Part shown: positions 3,990 through 29,330 of the stretch, one piece after another
How the letters are laid out: each line of letters opens with the position of its first letter
Position numbering within the stretch: the stretch's first letter is position 1
Assembly: GCA_026120035.1 (NCBI GenBank)
Contig: JALRME010000037.1
Span: 284,001-348,000 of the forward strand
DNA from: Coleophoma eucalyptorum
Lineage: Eukaryota > Ascomycota > Leotiomycetes > Helotiales > Dermateaceae
Reading direction: 5' to 3'
Length of the DNA stretch: 64,000 nt
Translations under genes and position numbers: made by a program
The notes under the pieces: generated by a model
Databases searched by the model: none
Seen by the model: only the letters and a program-made list of their open reading frames with translations
Told to the model about the DNA's origin: nothing

Positions 3990-5359
3990 GAACTAAGAAA
4001 GTTTAAGCTGTTAGGTAGGGACGAGTAACGTGAAAGAGCGGTTTTCTGCAGAGAGAAATCGTGGGATGGTGTTTCAATTTATGTCTGGCGGCGGCGACTG
4101 AAGAAGGAACCCCAAGCTGGATTCAATATTGCGCCTGCTACGCCGCAGAGGTATTTTCGTATCCATCGATAGCTTCAGATACAAGCAATTGCCAAGAGAT
4201 CTCATTCCCGATGGCCGAACGTAAGCTGAGCGGACAGGCAGACTGGGAGGAACTATTGAGACTGTTGCCAGCCAGGCTAGCAATGCGGCCCTGGACCAGG
4301 GTAGAGATCCCTGAAGATGCCCAAAAGCTTACCTTCGTAAAATATCATCATCCTTGGAGTTTCCCATGTCGTACATTCTCTCTAGGCGCCACTGATCATG
4401 GCGTCAGCCACAATTGAGACGATCGGGGTTTACGCAACACCGGGAGGTCTTCGCTGCGAGCTGGTCGATGATAAATTCTAGTTCCTTGCACAACTAATCC
4501 CTAAGTCATTAGGCAGTGCAGGCACCAGTAATTCGCGGCTGAAAGATACATCAGCGGCCGATACAGCCGGTGGAGGAATTATAAAGCCGTGTTGCTGATT
4601 TGAATCGAGGATAGAATACCATAATGCATTTGAGCTAACTATTCTCGGCCATTAACATACTTGCTTCTTATACCACCTTACGTACATAAGGGATGGTACT
4701 GCCTTTTTAGGATTGGATCTGAGAATCTCGTATATGCGTCTAGAATCGTACGGTTGGAATCATATTTCGAGGACTCGTCACGTCTACAAAACTCAGTTTG
4801 GTAGCAAGCGTCCAGCAGATCAAAATCGCAGAGTAAGTTGTATATTTACGGTTAAGGAAATAAGGCGCTAGCAGATCCAATGAACTCACTCAATCTCACG
4901 CATGCAGGGAGCGCATGCAGAAGTCGGCATCTTGATTTGACATAATTCAATCAGCAAGATACAGTCAGCGAGCTGAAGGACGGACGGCACTGTACAGAAA
5001 CGCGGAATTGCCAGCCAGTTCTCGCCGGGAAAGGTTCTCCTGGAATAAATACCTACCTAGTTGCACCTAGTCAGCCCAAGATATAGAGAGTTAAAATAAG
5101 TCGGAAGTACCGTACCTACCCCTTCCCTCCCGACCACCTGTAGCGCGACTTGGCATGCTTACTGAGAGGATCGTTGTTAGTGCATTTTAGCGATCGCATC
5201 ACTATTCTTGTGGGGTCCTGATCGCTAAAAGACCAACCCGTGCGTGCCCCACAGGCCAGTATGGAGTCGGGTCCGTTGGCCAAGGACGGGAGTTTAAACT
5301 TATTTCACCTCTCTGTATGATAACAGATCTAATACTCCATTTGGCTGCAGAATGCCAAG
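3990..5359. other. Intergenic, divergent promoters of the propeller gene and AflR-like regulator
   Basis: The stretch has a 118-codon open frame at 4061-4417 (+) with no recognisable family features, which I do not call. Two other things are visible: scattered direct copies of GCATGCAG around 4900-4920, and the perfect inverted repeat listed at 5185-5230. Otherwise nothing. Confidence 0.5.
5185..5230. promoter_or_regulatory. 11-bp perfect inverted repeat upstream of the AflR-like gene
   Basis: TTTTAGCGATC at 5185-5195 and its exact reverse complement GATCGCTAAAA at 5220-5230, separated by 24 nt, about 130-175 bp before the regulator's ATG. It could be an operator for a dimeric regulator or an RNA hairpin in the leader; the sequence alone does not decide. 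Confidence 0.45.
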
Positions 5360-6910
5360 ATGGATGTTGAACCTTTGCAACCGACGACTACGCAACGTAC
5401 CCGCCCGTTTGCAAGCAATGGCCAGCCTGAACGCCGAACCCCCAAACTACGCGCATCGTGTGACAACTGCTCCAACGCCAAGGTCCGCTGTGACCAAGAG
5501 CGGCCATCGTGCCAGCGATGCTTTTACGCGGGCGTTCAATGCATTTATAGCATCTCCAGGCGGATGGGCAAACCTCCCAGTTCTGGCCGAAATGGCAATA
5601 CCAACGGAAATGGGAGTGGGAATGGGAATGGAAACCGGAACGGTCGTGGAAGTGCCAGTGGGAGTTTGAGTGGGAATGAAGAAGCCAAACAGATGACAGC
5701 CAGAAATACTACAGCGACTACGGCGCAGGCTGTGAATATACCCTCTCCGAGATTCAATCGTGGAAGCAGCGCCAAGGTCTCTCCCCCACAGCTGACAGAC
5801 AACACGACCCTCGACAATTTCTGCCAAGACTATGATATTACGGACGTGGACAACATGTCTTCGAACTTCATGACAGAACAGCTACTATCTGCCTCCGTGG
5901 ACATGTCACTAGACGACCAGATGAGCTTCACCAACGTATCCAGCGCCGGCCATGAAAACCAGGCACAGCTTGCTCAGGCCAAAGATTTCAACGAGCAGAT
6001 GCTTTCCATCAACAGCATGGAACTTTTGGATCAGAACGGCAGCTACCACAGTGGCTCTAGCTCCAATACTATTGGAAATCGCGCCGACGAAGTGCAATCG
6101 GGCTTCCATTTGCTTTCGACCTCAATAAAGAGTTCCAATACGACGTCAGACCAGCTTCACAAAACAGCTTCTTGTGTCCATCTCACATCCTCTACCTTGC
6201 ACAGCCTTTCCGTTCATTTCAACGTCTGTACCACTTCTCCCAGTCAAGTTCCGTTCAGTACCATCGACCGAGTTCTAGACACGAGCCGGCAAGCCATGAC
6301 CGCTTTCCAGACACTGCTACAATGTCCCTGCTCGCAAACTAGTAGTTCTGCCATGTCCCTGGCCCTGATAATCCTCAAGATTCTAGACTGCTATTGCGCC
6401 ATTACTCATTGTTTATCGTCTCTTTCTTCCGGGACCAATTTTCCCGGACCACCATCGTTAACAAACGATAATAGTAGAGATCAACATTTTTCACAGTCAA
6501 TACCAGTCTCGACATCCACAACCCCACCTCTGAACTCTTCGTCAAGACCAGCGCAGAAGATGGTGTTAGGCACGCCGATCACAATTGGGGCGTACAAAAT
6601 CGATGCCGACGATGAGCACCCCTTCATCCTCCACCTGCTGCTAAGCGAGCTACGCAAGGTCGGGAGGCTGGTCGAGGCATTTACAGCCCGGTACTGCCCG
6701 GCAAGCGCAAGCTCCCATCGGAATGGCGACATGGTTGGGGGCCGTAGTCGAGACGGGGATTTTCTGGGCTCCAATAGCAGCAGTAGTAGAGAGGAGCCTA
6801 TCTATTCTGCACTTAAGCAATTCCTGTCATCGAAGGTGAATGCGACGAGGCGGGAAGTGAGTGTTGTGTTGTCAAGAAGCGAGGAGGGGGCCATAGACTT
6901 TGGATCGTAA
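5360..6910 (+). CDS. AflR-type Zn2Cys6 transcription factor, 516 aa
   Basis: Nuclear DNA-binding regulator of the fungal binuclear zinc-cluster class. Cysteines at residues 34, 37, 44, 51, 54 and 61 follow the C-X2-C-X6-C-X6-C-X2-C-X6-C pattern, starting LRASCDNCSNAKVRC, which is very close to AflR and its relatives in polyketide clusters. Basic residues and a linker (SRRMGKPPSSGRN) follow, then a low-complexity Asn-Gly tract (about residues 77-100) and Ser/Thr-rich stretches. The C-terminal half has the AflR-family features: CPCSQTSSSAMSLALIILKILDCY near 328-350 and a helix-rich end after ITIGAYKIDADDEHPF. Such proteins usually bind TCG-N5-CGA type sites and switch on neighbouring biosynthetic genes, so this is the likely pathway-specific regulator of region 1. 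Coded in one open frame without introns. Confidence 0.92.
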   Translation: MDVEPLQPTTTQRTRPFASNGQPERRTPKLRASCDNCSNAKVRCDQERPSCQRCFYAGVQCIYSISRRMGKPPSSGRNGNTNGNGSGNGNGNRNGRGSASGSLSGNEEAKQMTARNTTATTAQAVNIPSPRFNRGSSAKVSPPQLTDNTTLDNFCQDYDITDVDNMSSNFMTEQLLSASVDMSLDDQMSFTNVSSAGHENQAQLAQAKDFNEQMLSINSMELLDQNGSYHSGSSSNTIGNRADEVQSGFHLLSTSIKSSNTTSDQLHKTASCVHLTSSTLHSLSVHFNVCTTSPSQVPFSTIDRVLDTSRQAMTAFQTLLQCPCSQTSSSAMSLALIILKILDCYCAITHCLSSLSSGTNFPGPPSLTNDNSRDQHFSQSIPVSTSTTPPLNSSSRPAQKMVLGTPITIGAYKIDADDEHPFILHLLLSELRKVGRLVEAFTARYCPASASSHRNGDMVGGRSRDGDFLGSNSSSSREEPIYSALKQFLSSKVNATRREVSVVLSRSEEGAIDFGS

Positions 6911-17825: not shown

Positions 17826-18337
17826 GAGTGATGATGTTTTTGAGCTGTTTATGAGATTGGAGCCAGAGTACCATCACTTGTTATATTCTTCTGGTACGTC
17901 GTAAACGTTTCCACTTAGGTATCGTTCCAAGAAGGCCAAGGCCACGGCTTACGTCAGATGAAGTCATGCCATCCTGGTCTGGAGAACCTGGAAATAGGTT
18001 CCCTAGACAGTAAATTGGCACAGTAGAAACGGTGACGCATTGTTCTAATCTTACTTGCGGGAGAAAGTCACCTTAAAAACGTACCCTGAATTGATGGGAG
18101 GAAGCATGCATTATTAAGCAGCAATGTAGAAAGCAGAAACCGGAGAAACCTACAGTTTAAGTTCCAAGGAAAGTCAATATTGATCGGATATCATATGTTG
18201 ACGAAGGGGCAACTAAGAATCAAATAGCCGGTAGCTTTCGATGTGGTGGTTTTGTGGTAGTTATTAAGGTAAGATATCAGCCGGGGACTCCAATTAAAGC
18301 ACCAATGGTTCAGATGGACCAGCAGCTTCAAATCCAA
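17826..18337. other. Intergenic, upstream of the tRNA
   Basis: Promoter side of the ABM gene and 5' flank of the tRNA gene. No coding segment seen. Confidence 0.55.
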
Positions 18338-18465
18338 TCCGCTATGGCGCAATTGGCTAGCGCGGTAAGCATTTAAAGATGATCAATTTATCACAATTCA
18401 TAAGCTAATTCAATACAGTTCGACTGTTAATCGAGAGGTTGGAAGTTCAAGCCTTCCTAGCGGAG
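18338..18465 (+). tRNA. tRNA-Asn(GTT) interrupted by a 54-nt insert between D-arm and anticodon arm
   Basis: A full cloverleaf can be drawn if bases 18365-18418 are removed. Acceptor stem TCCGCTA (18338-18344) pairs 7/7 with TAGCGGA (18458-18464), followed by discriminator G. The D-arm is GCGC-AATTGGCTA-GCGC. The anticodon arm is TTCGA-CTGTTAA-TCGAG with anticodon GTT (Asn). The T-arm is GGAAG-TTCAAGC-CTTCC, perfectly paired. The joined RNA would be 74 nt. The A box (TGGCGCAATTGG) and B-box region (GTTCAAGCC) are in place and a T6 terminator follows. Eukaryotic nuclear tRNA introns sit after position 37; this one sits at 26/27, so the tRNA endonuclease would not be expected to recognise it. 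The acceptor stem is unusual (U1-A72) but pairs perfectly, which argues against simple decay. Confidence 0.85.
18365..18418 (+). other. Spliceosomal-type intron inside the tRNA gene
   Basis: The 54-nt insert starts GTAAGC, ends TACAG and contains GCTAATT (CTAAT branch-like site) 10-16 nt before the 3' end. In length and signals it matches the short protein-gene introns in this window. I see no bulge-helix-bulge or position-37 context of a classical tRNA intron. Confidence 0.7.
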
Positions 18466-18469
18466 TTCC

Positions 18470-18475
18470 TTTTTT
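18470..18475 (+). terminator. Pol III terminator (T6)
   Basis: Six T residues begin five bases after the discriminator base of the tRNA, as for a normal RNA polymerase III gene. Confidence 0.75.
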
Positions 18476-19264
18476 GCAATTTTTTGATGCCTAACCTTGG
18501 TGACTAATACACCTTTACATATAGGAAGCCGAAAATAGTGGAACCGATTGTACCCACAGACCTTTGCTCCGCGACCCGAAGCGACCTCACTAAATACCCA
18601 GAATTTGCAGACCAAGGTGGATCTCTAACTCTAGTTTTTGTGTTCATTGTACATCTTGACCAATGCGCTCTGGTCATTTCCCTACGGGCAGGTGGTTGCG
18701 GCTGGGAAAATAAGCCCATTTCGAGAGCAAAACTAAAATGCAGAAAACATGCAACAGTATGTATTCGCTAGTTGTCACCCACCCAACTGCTAATCTACCG
18801 ATCTGAAGCTTTCCTTAGCTTAATACTTAGAACGGCCGCTTCTAGCTTAGATTTTAAGTACGTTATCCTACCAAATTGAGTAGGCTATGTAAGTAGAGGG
18901 TAAAGTAAAACCTCACTAGATGATAATAGTAAGTCGTAGTAATCCGAGTTAATCTAAGGTGATCTAAAGTAATTCTTTCGTATGTATGATATATAGATAG
19001 GTAGACCTATACCTACGGGTTATAGAGACGATTCGGGGGAACGTAAGTAACTAATGCTAGTTTCTATACGTATAAATATATATCCTATAGATAGATAGTA
19101 GCTTCTTACTTGTCGAACATCTAGGATTGTCCCCGAGTACTGAACGCAAGTAAACGCTAATCTACTAAGCCCTTGACTTTTGTGCTGATTCTAAAATATG
19201 AAGATTGACCTGATTTTAAAAAACGATCCGATATAGCACTCCTCCGAAGGATATTGACGAGCCA
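18476..19264. other. Intergenic, repeat-relic sequence
   Basis: Low-complexity, AT-rich, with many GTAGTAA/GATCTAA-like near-repeats around 18900-19030. The segment at about 18755-18795 resembles one at about 51712-51755 (see that entry). Probably old, mutated repeats; no gene seen. Confidence 0.4.
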
Positions 19265-26457: not shown

Positions 26458-29330
26458 CTAGTCAACAAACCAGACCTGATCATCGTCTAACCTCTGTGCA
26501 AGAAAAATCTCCTGCCTGTACCAATTCGCAATCTTTTTCCATACATGATCCAGAAAATCGTCAGGCCACATGTAGTTGATGGCATCGACAAGCTTCTGGT
26601 CAGTATTTTGAGCACTCTTCATCAAAGACTGCATCTCCTGCTTCAATATGCCCATGATCTGTTTATATTCTTCGTTCTCTACATCGCCAATTTGACACAT
26701 CCGCCGTGTCAATTCGTGCTTTCGAAGTTGCATTGCAATTTGCTCGATAGCATTCACCACTAGTCTTTCCTCGGGACCACATCGCGAAACTATCACAAAC
26801 CCTTCAGACCTAACAGCAATTCCTTTATTATTGTCGCGTTTTCTATCGGCTGGAGACACATGACTATCTGTAGGAACTTTTGCTGATTGTATCATTGTAG
26901 CCGCCTCCACCATCTGTACGATAAGACCTGGACAATCTTCCTCAGCAGACTTTTGTTTTGATGTAGGAATCTTCTGTGATAGTAAGGCACAATGTCCGAT
27001 AGATGCTATATAATGTAGCGGATGGGTCATTCCAATTTGCCAAGCTCTTTCATTATTGTCCCCCTCAATCCGATTTTCATATTCCGCATCTGCACGAAAA
27101 AACTTGAACAAGGAGTTGTCTGGCGTTTGAAAGTATATAAAATCTTCTGGTAGAGATTTTATAGTCCCATCTTTCGTTCTTAAGCTTCCTGCAAAGGGAT
27201 CACGAGAGAGACCATCATTGTAGACGGGTGGATGTAAGTGAAATCCTGGAAACTGTACCCGCAGGCCCAGAGGAGTTCGGGACTCAGCACGGGGTGTTCC
27301 AAAGTATACTTGTCTTCCGCCAGGGCCGCCATCTCGTGCGGCAAATCCAAGCATACTTTTAGGTGCCCATCGAAAGCCAGGCGTGTTTGAGCGAGGTTCA
27401 GGGAGGAATATAATTCCACTTGGAACTCCACATCGGGATTTAATGAGTAGGTCCCAAGCTTGACACATTCTCGACTGCTCTGCAACCGAGGTGATAGCAG
27501 ACATGTCTAAGGACATCAAGGTTCCAATGCAAAGCGGCTCGTCGGTGGCTACTGTAACGGACCGATTCTTGAGAGCAGAATCAAGAATAGATAGGTTGGC
27601 TTGGGGTCTTCTATACTCTTCATTGTAAAAAAAGGATCGTAAGAGGCTTATTTCGTGCAGTATTGCAGAAGTTGGTCCTCGATGCCAGACGTCACTTGTC
27701 CATAGCTTCAGAACTCTGAGGTAGATATAATTAAGGGCAATTGCTTTATCGAATTGAAATAGGAGAACTTTGGCAAGTGCTGCTTCTTGTAACGTCCACA
27801 ATCGACGCATCCAGCTACAATTGAGGATCCTTGCCATGACTTCGAACGCTGACATTGTACCAACTGTATAAGGTCTTAAACTTGAATCAAGGACAAGGAC
27901 TCCAGCCGCTCCTTTGTACACGTTCTGGATTTTTTGAAGTGAGATATCTTTCGCCGATCGTGGCTCAATAGGACAACATAGAGTGTCCAACCAAACAAGT
28001 ACGCTGAACTCGTCGTCATTAGCTCCATCGTTCTCGTGTTTTGGGGCAAAATCCGAAATTGCTTTAATCCAATCACGGACGCGCGCCAATTGACAACAAT
28101 AAAGAGAATTAGATGTTGGGTTTCCCATTCCATCTGCCCATACCTATAATTCTTTTGGTCAGCAGAGTAATAGAAAAGATTGTATACATGGCTACTAGCT
28201 CTAACCTCTCAAATGTATACACTTACATGAGAAATAGCCATATACTTTGCTTCTGGAGCCGATTCTATCACCTCAACCTTCAAATTATTAATATCTTTAT
28301 CGCCACCGGTAATTTTCAGAATTGGAACCAAGTCCTTCTTTTGAAGGATTTTAATCACGGCCTTATTATCAATTGTTAGCAGCTCACATCGGCAACCCTC
28401 TGCGGTGTGCTCAACGGTATAGCTTTTTATGTCGATCTGACCAGCTGCACAACGCTGTCTGGTGCAAACGGTATGATCCCGTTCGGGCAAAGATTTATTT
28501 ATCCTGCTAATGAGGTACGCCATATGCGCCGAGTCGATCGTGTTGGCACATTTCTCTATTTCACTTGGACACCAACCTAAGCCAGTCATTGCCCCCCTGA
28601 CTTCGTCATCCCAGAAATACTTTGCCCACAAACCCCATGGCTTTGTATCAATATCCAACTCGCTGGCGCAGTGAGCCACAAAATGCATCAGGATTTCTCC
28701 GATTCCGCCTATGGATAGTTTGATCAACGGATCGAAGCTTTCCACCGCCCCAGAGTGGACTTGGGAGGCATATTGGATGCAGTAAGACAAATGTCTCGTC
28801 CGTATCTTCTTCTGTTCGATATCAACCGGTTGATCCTTGAACTCCTTCAATCCAGACTGGACAAGGGGAAGGAGCAGTTCGGTTGTGAGGAAGCTCTTTC
28901 CATCTTCTTCATATCGGAAACAATGGTAAAGCGCATCAAGGTCCTCTTTCCTCTTCTTCACCTTCTCATTCTCATCCCCTTCAAAATCGGACAAGGAAGC
29001 TTCCTCGCCAAAAAACTCTAGAAGGAGGCCGAAGACTAACCATGTCTGGAAGAAAGCAGCTTGTTCTCTGGGGTCAGGGACTGGGCGAGTAGATCGACCC
29101 CGAACGGGTACGGGGTGGTAGTCGGGAGACGGGTAATTAACGAAGGCTACCTTTCGACGCTGGGCATATTGTAAAAAGGACAGCCCATCATAGCGTTGGT
29201 CGGCCACATAAGGCACTCGGGGAATGGTGTAAACCGAGCTGTTGGGATGAAGAAAATGCTCCATTTCGAGGAATTCGGAGTCATAGGAAAGAATTCCATC
29301 ACAGGTGCGGCTGAGTACAAGTCGACACAT
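26458..29330 (-). CDS. HET-domain protein (heterokaryon incompatibility type), 929 aa
   Basis: Large intracellular protein with the HET domain, which in ascomycetes triggers cell death after fusion of unlike hyphae. Two exons in transcript order, 29330-28227 and 28143-26458, joined by an 83-nt GTAAGT...TATAG intron exactly inside the first HET block. Residues 1-350 have no domain I recognise. HET block 1 is AISHVWADGMGNP (about 365-377), block 2 VLVWLDTLCCPIE followed by IQNVYKGAAGVLVLD, and block 3 WMRRLWTLQEAALAKVLLF; all three are intact. The remaining 400 residues are helical, including a coiled-coil-like end (ENEEYKQIMGILKQEMQSL). Divergent from the TLC gene across about 540 bp. Allelic self/non-self function is inferred from the family only. 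Confidence 0.9.

What the first reader, a model, noticed from the sequence alone, without database searches (positions are those of the whole stretch)
18338..18465. tRNA-Asn gene split by a spliceosomal-type intron between D-arm and anticodon arm
Seen: two halves of a perfect cloverleaf (7/7 acceptor pairs, full D-, anticodon- and T-arms, G73, Pol III T6 terminator) are separated at position 26/27 by 54 nt with GTAAGC at the 5' end, CTAAT inside and TACAG at the 3' end. Known: nuclear tRNA introns in fungi lie after position 37 and are cut by the tRNA endonuclease, whereas GT-AG introns are removed by the spliceosome from Pol II transcripts; mRNA-type introns are known in some fungal U6 (Pol III) genes. 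Inference: either a Pol III transcript is spliced by the spliceosome, or this locus is transcribed by Pol II, or it is a silent copy hit by intron insertion. Each would be unusual, and standard tRNA finders that expect introns only at 37/38 could miss it.
Basis: partly seen in the sequence, partly recalled or inferred. Interest (0 to 1): 0.88.

Follow-up and report, generated by a model that had tools for sequence, protein, structure and literature searches.

The report
Spliceosomal-type introns in fungal tRNA genes
In this filamentous fungus several nuclear transfer-RNA genes, including every asparagine tRNA gene found, are interrupted by short introns that look like those of messenger RNAs, so the cell probably needs its mRNA-splicing machine to make tRNA.

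Summary
At 18338-18465 (+) lies a tRNA-Asn(GUU) gene with a fully paired cloverleaf, split between positions 26 and 27 by 54 nt (18365-18418: GTAAGC...CTAAT...TACAG). It is not a lone oddity. The same genome (45.3 Mb, 101 contigs; apparently Leotiomycetes) has five nuclear tRNA-Asn genes that I could find, all with an insert at this site. Similar inserts lie in Thr(UGU) x2 (variable loop), Ser(GCU) (D-loop), Lys(UUU) (9/10) and Leu(UAG) (7/8). All 10 inserts are GT-AG and 52-57 nt long; 9 of 10 carry CTAAY with its A 10-12 nt before the 3' end. Of 57 canonical 37/38 tRNA introns of the same genome, 0 are GT-AG. Lys, Leu and Ser have insert-free paralogues that fix the insertion points. The Asn copies differ by compensatory stem changes, so they are not decaying. 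The same genome's U6 gene (a Pol III kind of gene) has a matching 54-nt GTAAGT...CTAAC...CAG intron. Best reading: Pol III pre-tRNAs spliced by the spliceosome, six of the ten genes also needing tRNA endonuclease. Splicing itself is not shown: no RNA data and no relatives' genomes were available, and the tRNA census was not exhaustive.

The parts
18338..18364 (+). tRNA-Asn exon 1: 5' acceptor strand, D-arm, position 26
   Evidence: Sequence; identical in L002 and L003a; cloverleaf
18345..18356 (+). A-box-like internal promoter TGGCGCAATTGG
   Evidence: Sequence; the A-box motif is recalled knowledge
18365..18418 (+). 54-nt spliceosomal-type intron at tRNA position 26/27
   Evidence: registers GT-AG or GG-CA
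18365..18370 (+). 5' splice site GTAAGC
   Evidence: compatible with the Fusarium 5' splice-site table (passage of PMC5677156)
18405..18409 (+). Branch-site motif CTAAT, A at 18408, 10 nt before the 3' end
   Evidence: CTRAY in 91% of Fusarium introns (passage)
18416..18418 (+). 3' splice site CAG
18419..18465 (+). tRNA-Asn exon 2: anticodon arm, variable loop, T-arm, 3' acceptor strand, G73
18426..18428 (+). Anticodon GTT
   Evidence: ARAGORN on joined exons
18445..18453 (+). B-box GTTCAAGCC
   Evidence: Pattern hit C32:302445; the B-box motif is recalled knowledge
18470..18475 (+). T6 run, Pol III terminator-like
   Evidence: runs of five or more T within 45 nt downstream in 9 of the 10 insert-bearing genes; L141 has only T4 runs
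18248..18493 (+). Block shared with the paralogue L002 (89% over 247 nt); 18303-18485 shared with L003a (91% over 183 nt): the extent of the duplication
   Evidence: blastn

Best explanation
The insert is a U2-type spliceosomal intron in a working, Pol III-transcribed nuclear tRNA-Asn(GUU) gene. Pol III reads the whole gene from a start upstream of exon 1 to the T-run. In the nucleus U1/U6 recognise GTAAGC, U2 recognises CTAAT, and the spliceosome joins position 26 to 27. Paralogues that also carry a canonical 37/38 intron then go through the tRNA splicing endonuclease and ligase. The same route serves Thr(UGU), Lys(UUU), Leu(UAG) and Ser(GCU) genes with inserts at other positions. Shown here: anatomy, recurrence, insertion points, compensatory stem changes, the U6 intron sequence. 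Inferred: transcription by Pol III, removal by the spliceosome, order of the steps, need of the tRNA for asparagine decoding.
For: Ten tRNA genes in one genome carry such an insert, at five different positions. All 10 are GT-AG, 52-57 nt. CTAAY with A 10-12 nt from the end in 8 of 9 plus Thr L141 (letters), so 9 of 10. Control: of 57 distinct canonical 37/38 introns, 0 are GT-AG in any of 7 registers, 0 have CTRAY 8-20 nt from the end and 5 have CTRAY anywhere; 36 of the 57 are 25 nt or longer. The exact joined sequence around the junction exists uninterrupted in paralogues: Lys in L122, Leu in L118, Ser in L058, L059 and L105; not for Asn or Thr among the loci held. L059 and L105 are the same gene. 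For Leu only one register is possible, GT-AG. All five nuclear tRNA-Asn genes found have the insert. Three Asn acceptor stems (TCCGCTA, TCCTCCG, TCTCCCG) and two T-stems are each fully paired, with changes on both sides. No strict 4-bp BHB-like helix at any of 10 junctions. The same genome's U6 gene has a 54-nt GTAAGT...TTCTAAC...ACACAG intron splitting GATAC|AGAGA, single register. The window's SDR gene has a 77-nt GTAAGT...CTAAC...TAG intron placed by homology. S. [quoted passage not shown]
Against: No RNA evidence. No relative's genome could be searched, so conservation between species is untested. L002 has CTAAG instead of CTAAY. The two Thr introns start GTAAAT, and one ends GAAG, weaker than the Fusarium consensus. 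Upstream TATA-like elements are patchy: five of the ten insert-bearing genes have one 34-51 nt upstream, one only at -77, four none; insert-free comparators are as patchy. A blind ARAGORN deletion scan did not by itself pick the GT-AG registers for Asn, Ser or Thr. The patterns CTAAY...AG...B-box gave 102 and 99 hits against 151 and 161 for the reversed-pattern controls, so the patterns as such are not enriched; only hits with recognisable tRNA exons count. A review holds that short D- or T-arm insertions in eukaryotic tRNA genes are mostly in one of many synonymous genes and so are taken for pseudogenes (section 5 of PMC4090602); that could apply to Lys, Leu and Ser here. An insert-free tRNA-Asn with an unusual T-loop, a canonical intron longer than about 14 nt, or outside the assembly would have been missed.
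Confidence: 0.85

Rival explanations
1. The inserts are removed by the tRNA splicing endonuclease (SEN) acting at non-canonical positions, as in red algae, nucleomorphs and archaea.
For: Non-canonical tRNA introns exist in Cyanidioschyzon and nucleomorphs, and eukaryotic SEN can cut archaeal-type BHB substrates (section 5 of PMC4090602). This genome has many ordinary 37/38 introns, so SEN must be active.
Against: No 4-bp BHB-like helix flanked by 3-nt bulges at any of 10 junctions, 16 offsets each; relaxed motifs were not tested. Ordinary SEN introns lack local sequence motifs, and 0 of 57 here are GT-AG, whereas all 10 inserts are. Insert lengths are confined to 52-57 nt, near the Fusarium mRNA-intron median of 57.
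Confidence: 0.06
2. The interrupted genes are pseudogenes or silent copies hit by intron-like insertions; asparagine is decoded by another tRNA not in the assembly or not detected.
For: Lys, Leu and Ser have insert-free paralogues, so those three could be dispensable. Isolated D- or T-arm insertions in eukaryotes are usually taken for pseudogenes. The whole-genome searches were not exhaustive (1762 first-look candidates, 63 scored).
Against: Five Asn genes with intact, compensatorily changed stems and splice signals kept while intron interiors diverged (L001 vs L003b z 1.8, 7 of 200 shuffles as good). No insert-free nuclear tRNA-Asn by Rfam, by anticodon-arm pattern or by joined-exon search, within their limits.
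Confidence: 0.06
3. The genes are transcribed by Pol II as parts of longer RNAs, spliced like mRNA, and the tRNA is released afterwards.
For: Ordinary coupling of splicing to Pol II would explain GT-AG introns without a new kind of substrate.
Against: B-box sequences in all ten genes and runs of five or more T within 45 nt downstream in 9 of 10 (letters). The U6 gene of the same genome shows that an mRNA-type intron in a gene of Pol III kind is tolerated.
Confidence: 0.03

Closest known systems
mRNA-type introns in fungal U6 snRNA genes (Tani and Ohshima 1989, 1991; not read, seen as cited in passages of PMC8917221)
   Same: Short GT-AG intron inside a gene of Pol III kind; the U6 gene of this very genome has one with the same length class and motifs
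   Different: Here the host genes are tRNA genes, of five isoacceptor types, at five positions; no such report was found in the ten searches listed in Tried and rejected
Canonical nuclear tRNA introns (position 37/38, SEN endonuclease plus ligase; review PMC4090602, section 5 read)
   Same: Interrupt a nuclear tRNA gene; six of the ten genes carry one as well
   Different: Position, narrow length and GT-AG/CTAAY signals; 0 of 57 canonical introns here are GT-AG
Non-canonical tRNA introns of Cyanidioschyzon, nucleomorphs and archaea (PMC4090602, passages and section 5)
   Same: Inserts at D-arm, 25/26, 45/46 and other positions, sometimes two in one gene
   Different: Red-algal and archaeal ones depend on BHB motifs and splicing endonuclease; no strict BHB-like helix was found here
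U2-type spliceosomal introns of filamentous ascomycete mRNAs (Fusarium, PMC5677156, passages)
   Same: GTRWGY start in 8 of 10, CTRAY branch site in 9 of 10, AG end, 52-57 nt against a median of 57
   Different: Located in tRNA genes; the two Thr introns start GTAAAT

Membership tests
U2-type spliceosomal intron | GT at the 5' end and AG at the 3' end | tested here: met
   10 of 10 inserts (9, L141)
U2-type spliceosomal intron | 5' splice-site consensus GTRWGY | tested here: met
   8 of 10: GTAAGC x6, GTATGT, GTAAGT; the two Thr introns have GTAAAT
U2-type spliceosomal intron | Branch motif CTRAY shortly before the 3' end | tested here: met
   9 of 10, A 10-12 nt from the end; L002 has CTAAG
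U2-type spliceosomal intron | Removed by the spliceosome via a lariat | not testable with these tools
Functional nuclear tRNA-Asn(GUU) gene | Cloverleaf, anticodon GTT, A and B boxes, T-run | tested here: met
Functional nuclear tRNA-Asn(GUU) gene | Selection on the mature form: compensatory changes among copies | tested here: met
   Acceptor pairs 3, 4, 6, 7 and T-stem pairs 3 and 4 differ between copies with both sides changed, all still paired
Functional nuclear tRNA-Asn(GUU) gene | Mature tRNA present in the cell | not testable with these tools
   No expression data
Canonical SEN-type tRNA intron | Position 37/38 | tested here: not met
   Inserts at 26/27, 9/10, 7/8, D-loop and variable loop
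Non-canonical BHB intron (archaeal or red-algal kind) | Bulge-helix-bulge at the junctions | tested here: not met
   0 of 10 with a 4-bp central helix at any of 16 offsets; relaxed forms were not tested and no positive control was run
Group I or group II intron | Ribozyme core (size of several hundred nt, recalled) | tested here: not met
   52-57 nt long; no Rfam match over gathering score in the window
Pol III gene with mRNA-type intron (U6 kind) | Pol III promoter and terminator elements around a GT-AG intron | tested here: met
   B box and T-run by sequence; use of these elements in vivo not tested

The most novel reading that the evidence does not exclude
In this fungal lineage the spliceosome is a regular, essential tRNA-processing enzyme: every nuclear tRNA-Asn must pass through it. 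Some tRNAs (Asn, Thr, Leu and Ser copies) are matured by two unrelated splicing machines in turn, and spliceosomal introns have been gained repeatedly inside Pol III genes at sites in and around the A box, perhaps partly by copying between tRNA genes.
Probability: 0.65. Interest if true: 0.95.

Novelty: new variant of a known kind. Interest (0 to 1): 0.9.

Why it matters
Eukaryotic nuclear tRNA introns and spliceosomal introns are treated as separate worlds. If these inserts are spliced, translation in this fungus depends on the spliceosome through asparagine tRNA, Pol III transcripts other than U6 are regular spliceosome substrates, and single tRNA genes use two splicing systems in order. It would suggest that a cap and Pol II are not needed for such substrates, give a natural system for dating intron gain (genes with and without the insert side by side), and mean that standard tRNA finders miss essential tRNA genes in such genomes.

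Tried and rejected
Pseudogene reading: rejected for Asn because of compensatory stems and because no insert-free copy was found. BHB or SEN removal: tested with a strict motif, not found. Chance GT-AG: tested against the window's own segments and against 57 canonical introns.

U6 was first read as intron-free from the contiguous Rfam hit (and a note); corrected after reading the DNA: the model had aligned its 5' part to the intron. A second, weak U6 hit (C64:74520, 26 bits, below the cut-off) was not followed.

A blind deletion scan with ARAGORN on 60 candidate 3' ends (some are the same gene fetched twice) was a poor test: it had GT-AG among the equal-best deletions for Lys and Leu, but for four Asn genes preferred deletions 2 nt shorter, for L004 a wrong isotype, and for Ser and Thr wrong folds. 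Boundaries therefore rest on paralogues and cloverleaf geometry. My first joined Thr sequence kept one nucleotide too many and ARAGORN read an 8-nt loop; corrected, it reads tRNA-Thr(tgt).

ARAGORN with free intron placement called two genes on C10 tRNA-Asn(gtt); with the intron fixed at 37/38 they are tRNA-Met(cat), like their copy in L026, and I count them as Met.

L115 (Pro-like, C46:560551) lacks a recognisable 5' half within 300 nt; I read it as a degenerate copy, not an intron case. L139 (C58) was fetched as a possible further case and dropped: no convincing cloverleaf by eye. Viral and prokaryotic collections have no match to the exon 1|GTA junction. Literature: searches listed no paper whose title or abstract start reports spliceosomal introns in tRNA genes; the exact-phrase search had 0 hits; only open-licence papers are held and most listed papers were not opened (passages of PMC13148404, PMC8917221, PMC5677156, PMC4090602 and one section of the last were seen).

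Full report
What is there. Exon 1 (27 nt) and exon 2 (47 nt) join to a 74-nt tRNA-Asn(GTT) with all stems paired and G73. The 54-nt insert is GTAAGC...CTAAT...TACAG at 26/27. ARAGORN without introns and Rfam at gathering scores find nothing in the window.

Copies. The window lies at G000:C32:284001-348000. A search of the whole genome with the locus gave four places, and the anticodon-arm string TTCGACTGTTA gave 19, of which five are tRNA-Asn genes and 14 are not tRNA by their contexts. The five are the window gene, L002, two genes 1.1 kb apart in L003, and L004. All five have an insert at 26/27. Exons of the window gene, L002 and L003a are identical. L003b and L004 differ in acceptor and T-stem and also carry an 11-nt canonical 37/38 intron.

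No insert-free tRNA-Asn found. The Rfam tRNA search returned 62 matches, 13 of them on C56, the contig I take for mitochondrial; the only Asn I accept among them is there. Two genes on C10 that ARAGORN called Asn with free intron placement are Met(cat) with the intron fixed at 37/38. The pattern CTGTTAN{14,30}GTTCRANNC gave 38 hits (72 for the reversed control): the five genes, the C56 Asn, three stretches inside Met and Arg genes, and 29 that I judged by eye from the matched letters as not tRNA. A joined-exon query of one Asn type found only 3' exons of two genes; it missed the three type-A genes, so its reach is limited. The Rfam run itself missed many nuclear tRNAs that B-box patterns then found, so the census is a lower bound.

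Other tRNA genes. B-box patterns and partial matches led to more interrupted genes. Lys(UUU) L065: GCCCGGCTG | 54 nt GTAAGC...CTACTAAC...TATCAG | GCACAATTGG. Leu(UAG) L092: GGGAGTC | 57 nt GTAAGT...AACTAAC...CTAG | TGGCCGAG; only one register is possible, GT-AG. Ser(GCU) L134: GGCGGAG | 54 nt GTAAGC...TTCTAAC...CCAG | TGGTTAACGC. The exact joined sequences occur uninterrupted in L122 (Lys), L118 (Leu) and L058, L059 and L105 (Ser; the last two are one gene). Thr(UGU) L136 and L141, 1.4 kb apart: 52 and 57 nt in the variable loop, starting GTAAAT, with CTAAT, ending AG; the joined form reads Thr(tgt), and no insert-free Thr or Asn junction is in the loci held. L141 came from a pattern that required CTAAY and AG, so it is not an independent test of the motif. 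Leu, Ser, both Thr and two of the Asn genes, six of ten, also have a canonical intron.

Anatomy test. All ten inserts are GT-AG, 52-57 nt. In nine of ten CTAAY has its A 10-12 nt before the end; L002 has CTAAG. As control, of 57 distinct canonical 37/38 introns extracted by ARAGORN from the same genome, 0 are GT-AG in any of seven registers, 0 have CTRAY 8-20 nt from the end, 5 have CTRAY anywhere; 36 are 25 nt or longer, the longest 51. In the window 0.37% of all 52-57-nt segments are GT-AG. The Fusarium reference (passages of PMC5677156) gives a median length of 57 nt, CTRAY 91% and YAG|R 94%. A protein-coding intron in this window, placed by homology to P0009, is GTAAGT...CTAAC...TAG, 77 nt; a second candidate, in a LAG1-like gene, could not be placed cleanly.

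Function of the host gene. Three Asn acceptor stems and two T-stems differ on both strands and stay fully paired. I read that as selection on the mature tRNA in genes that all carry the insert. Intron interiors have diverged (for instance L001 against L003b, z 1.8) while splice signals stayed.

Mechanism. The U6 gene of the same genome (L140, C33) is split GATAC | GTAAGT...TTCTAAC...ACACAG | AGAGAAGATTAGC, 54 nt, one register; U6 identity rests on Rfam (53.6 bits, cut-off 44) and on the recalled ACAGAGA box. A U6 RNA with that box split should not work, so this organism presumably splices at least one Pol III transcript with the spliceosome, as S. pombe does (passage of PMC8917221). The tRNA inserts match that intron in length and motifs. 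No strict BHB-like motif was found at the ten junctions. TATA-like elements lie 34-51 nt upstream of exon 1 in five of the ten genes, including Leu and Ser whose A box is close to or split by the intron; one gene has it only at -77 and four have none (only 38 nt of upstream sequence were held for Lys); insert-free comparators are equally mixed, so this is weak evidence. I infer transcription from upstream of exon 1 to the T-run, spliceosomal removal in the nucleus, then SEN for the canonical intron where present.

Organism. The closest named homologues of one window protein are from Cudoniella acicularis and Coleophoma crateriformis at 84 and 83%, both Helotiales, Leotiomycetes; unnamed sources reach 86%. 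That is one protein, and the species is not identified.

Limits. No transcripts and no related fungal genomes could be searched; viral and prokaryotic collections have no match to the junction. Novelty rests on ten open-access literature searches (listed in Tried and rejected) and on recall; a subscription-only report could exist.

Noticed in passing
L140 (G000:C33:149694-149747): The U6 snRNA gene of this genome has a 54-nt mRNA-type intron splitting GATAC|AGAGA; the Rfam hit hides it because its 5' part aligns to the intron.
   Followed up: yes
57 distinct genes in fetched loci: Canonical 37/38 introns are very common here, for example in Glu, Gln, Ala, Ile, Lys and Leu tRNA genes; other fungi can be as rich (Cryptococcus 92%, section 5 of PMC4090602).
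   Followed up: partly
L004, L134 and L065 inserts: The inserts of Asn L004, Ser L134 and Lys L065 resemble each other more than shuffled sequence in two of three pairs (L004-Ser z 4.4, Lys-Ser z 3.7, L004-Lys z 1.4): perhaps copying between tRNA genes, or shared composition.
   Followed up: partly
18248-18337: The 5' flank shared with L002 and partly with L003a contains GGTTCAGATGG...TTCAAATCC, which looks like a further B-box-like element just upstream of the tRNA.
   Followed up: no
L115 (C46:560251-560651): tRNA-Pro(UGG)-like gene whose 3' half is intact but whose 5' half is not recognisable; the paralogue L116 is intact.
   Followed up: partly
L038 (G000:C50:145660-146035): AT-rich stretch (32% GC) with two adjacent tRNA-like genes of organellar look on a 153-kb contig separate from C56.
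   Followed up: no
26458-28143 (-) and 5333-6910 (+): A protein with a marginal HET-domain match (22.8 bits, cut-off 22.5) and one that by eye has a Zn2Cys6-type cysteine pattern, typical of filamentous ascomycetes (recalled).
   Followed up: no
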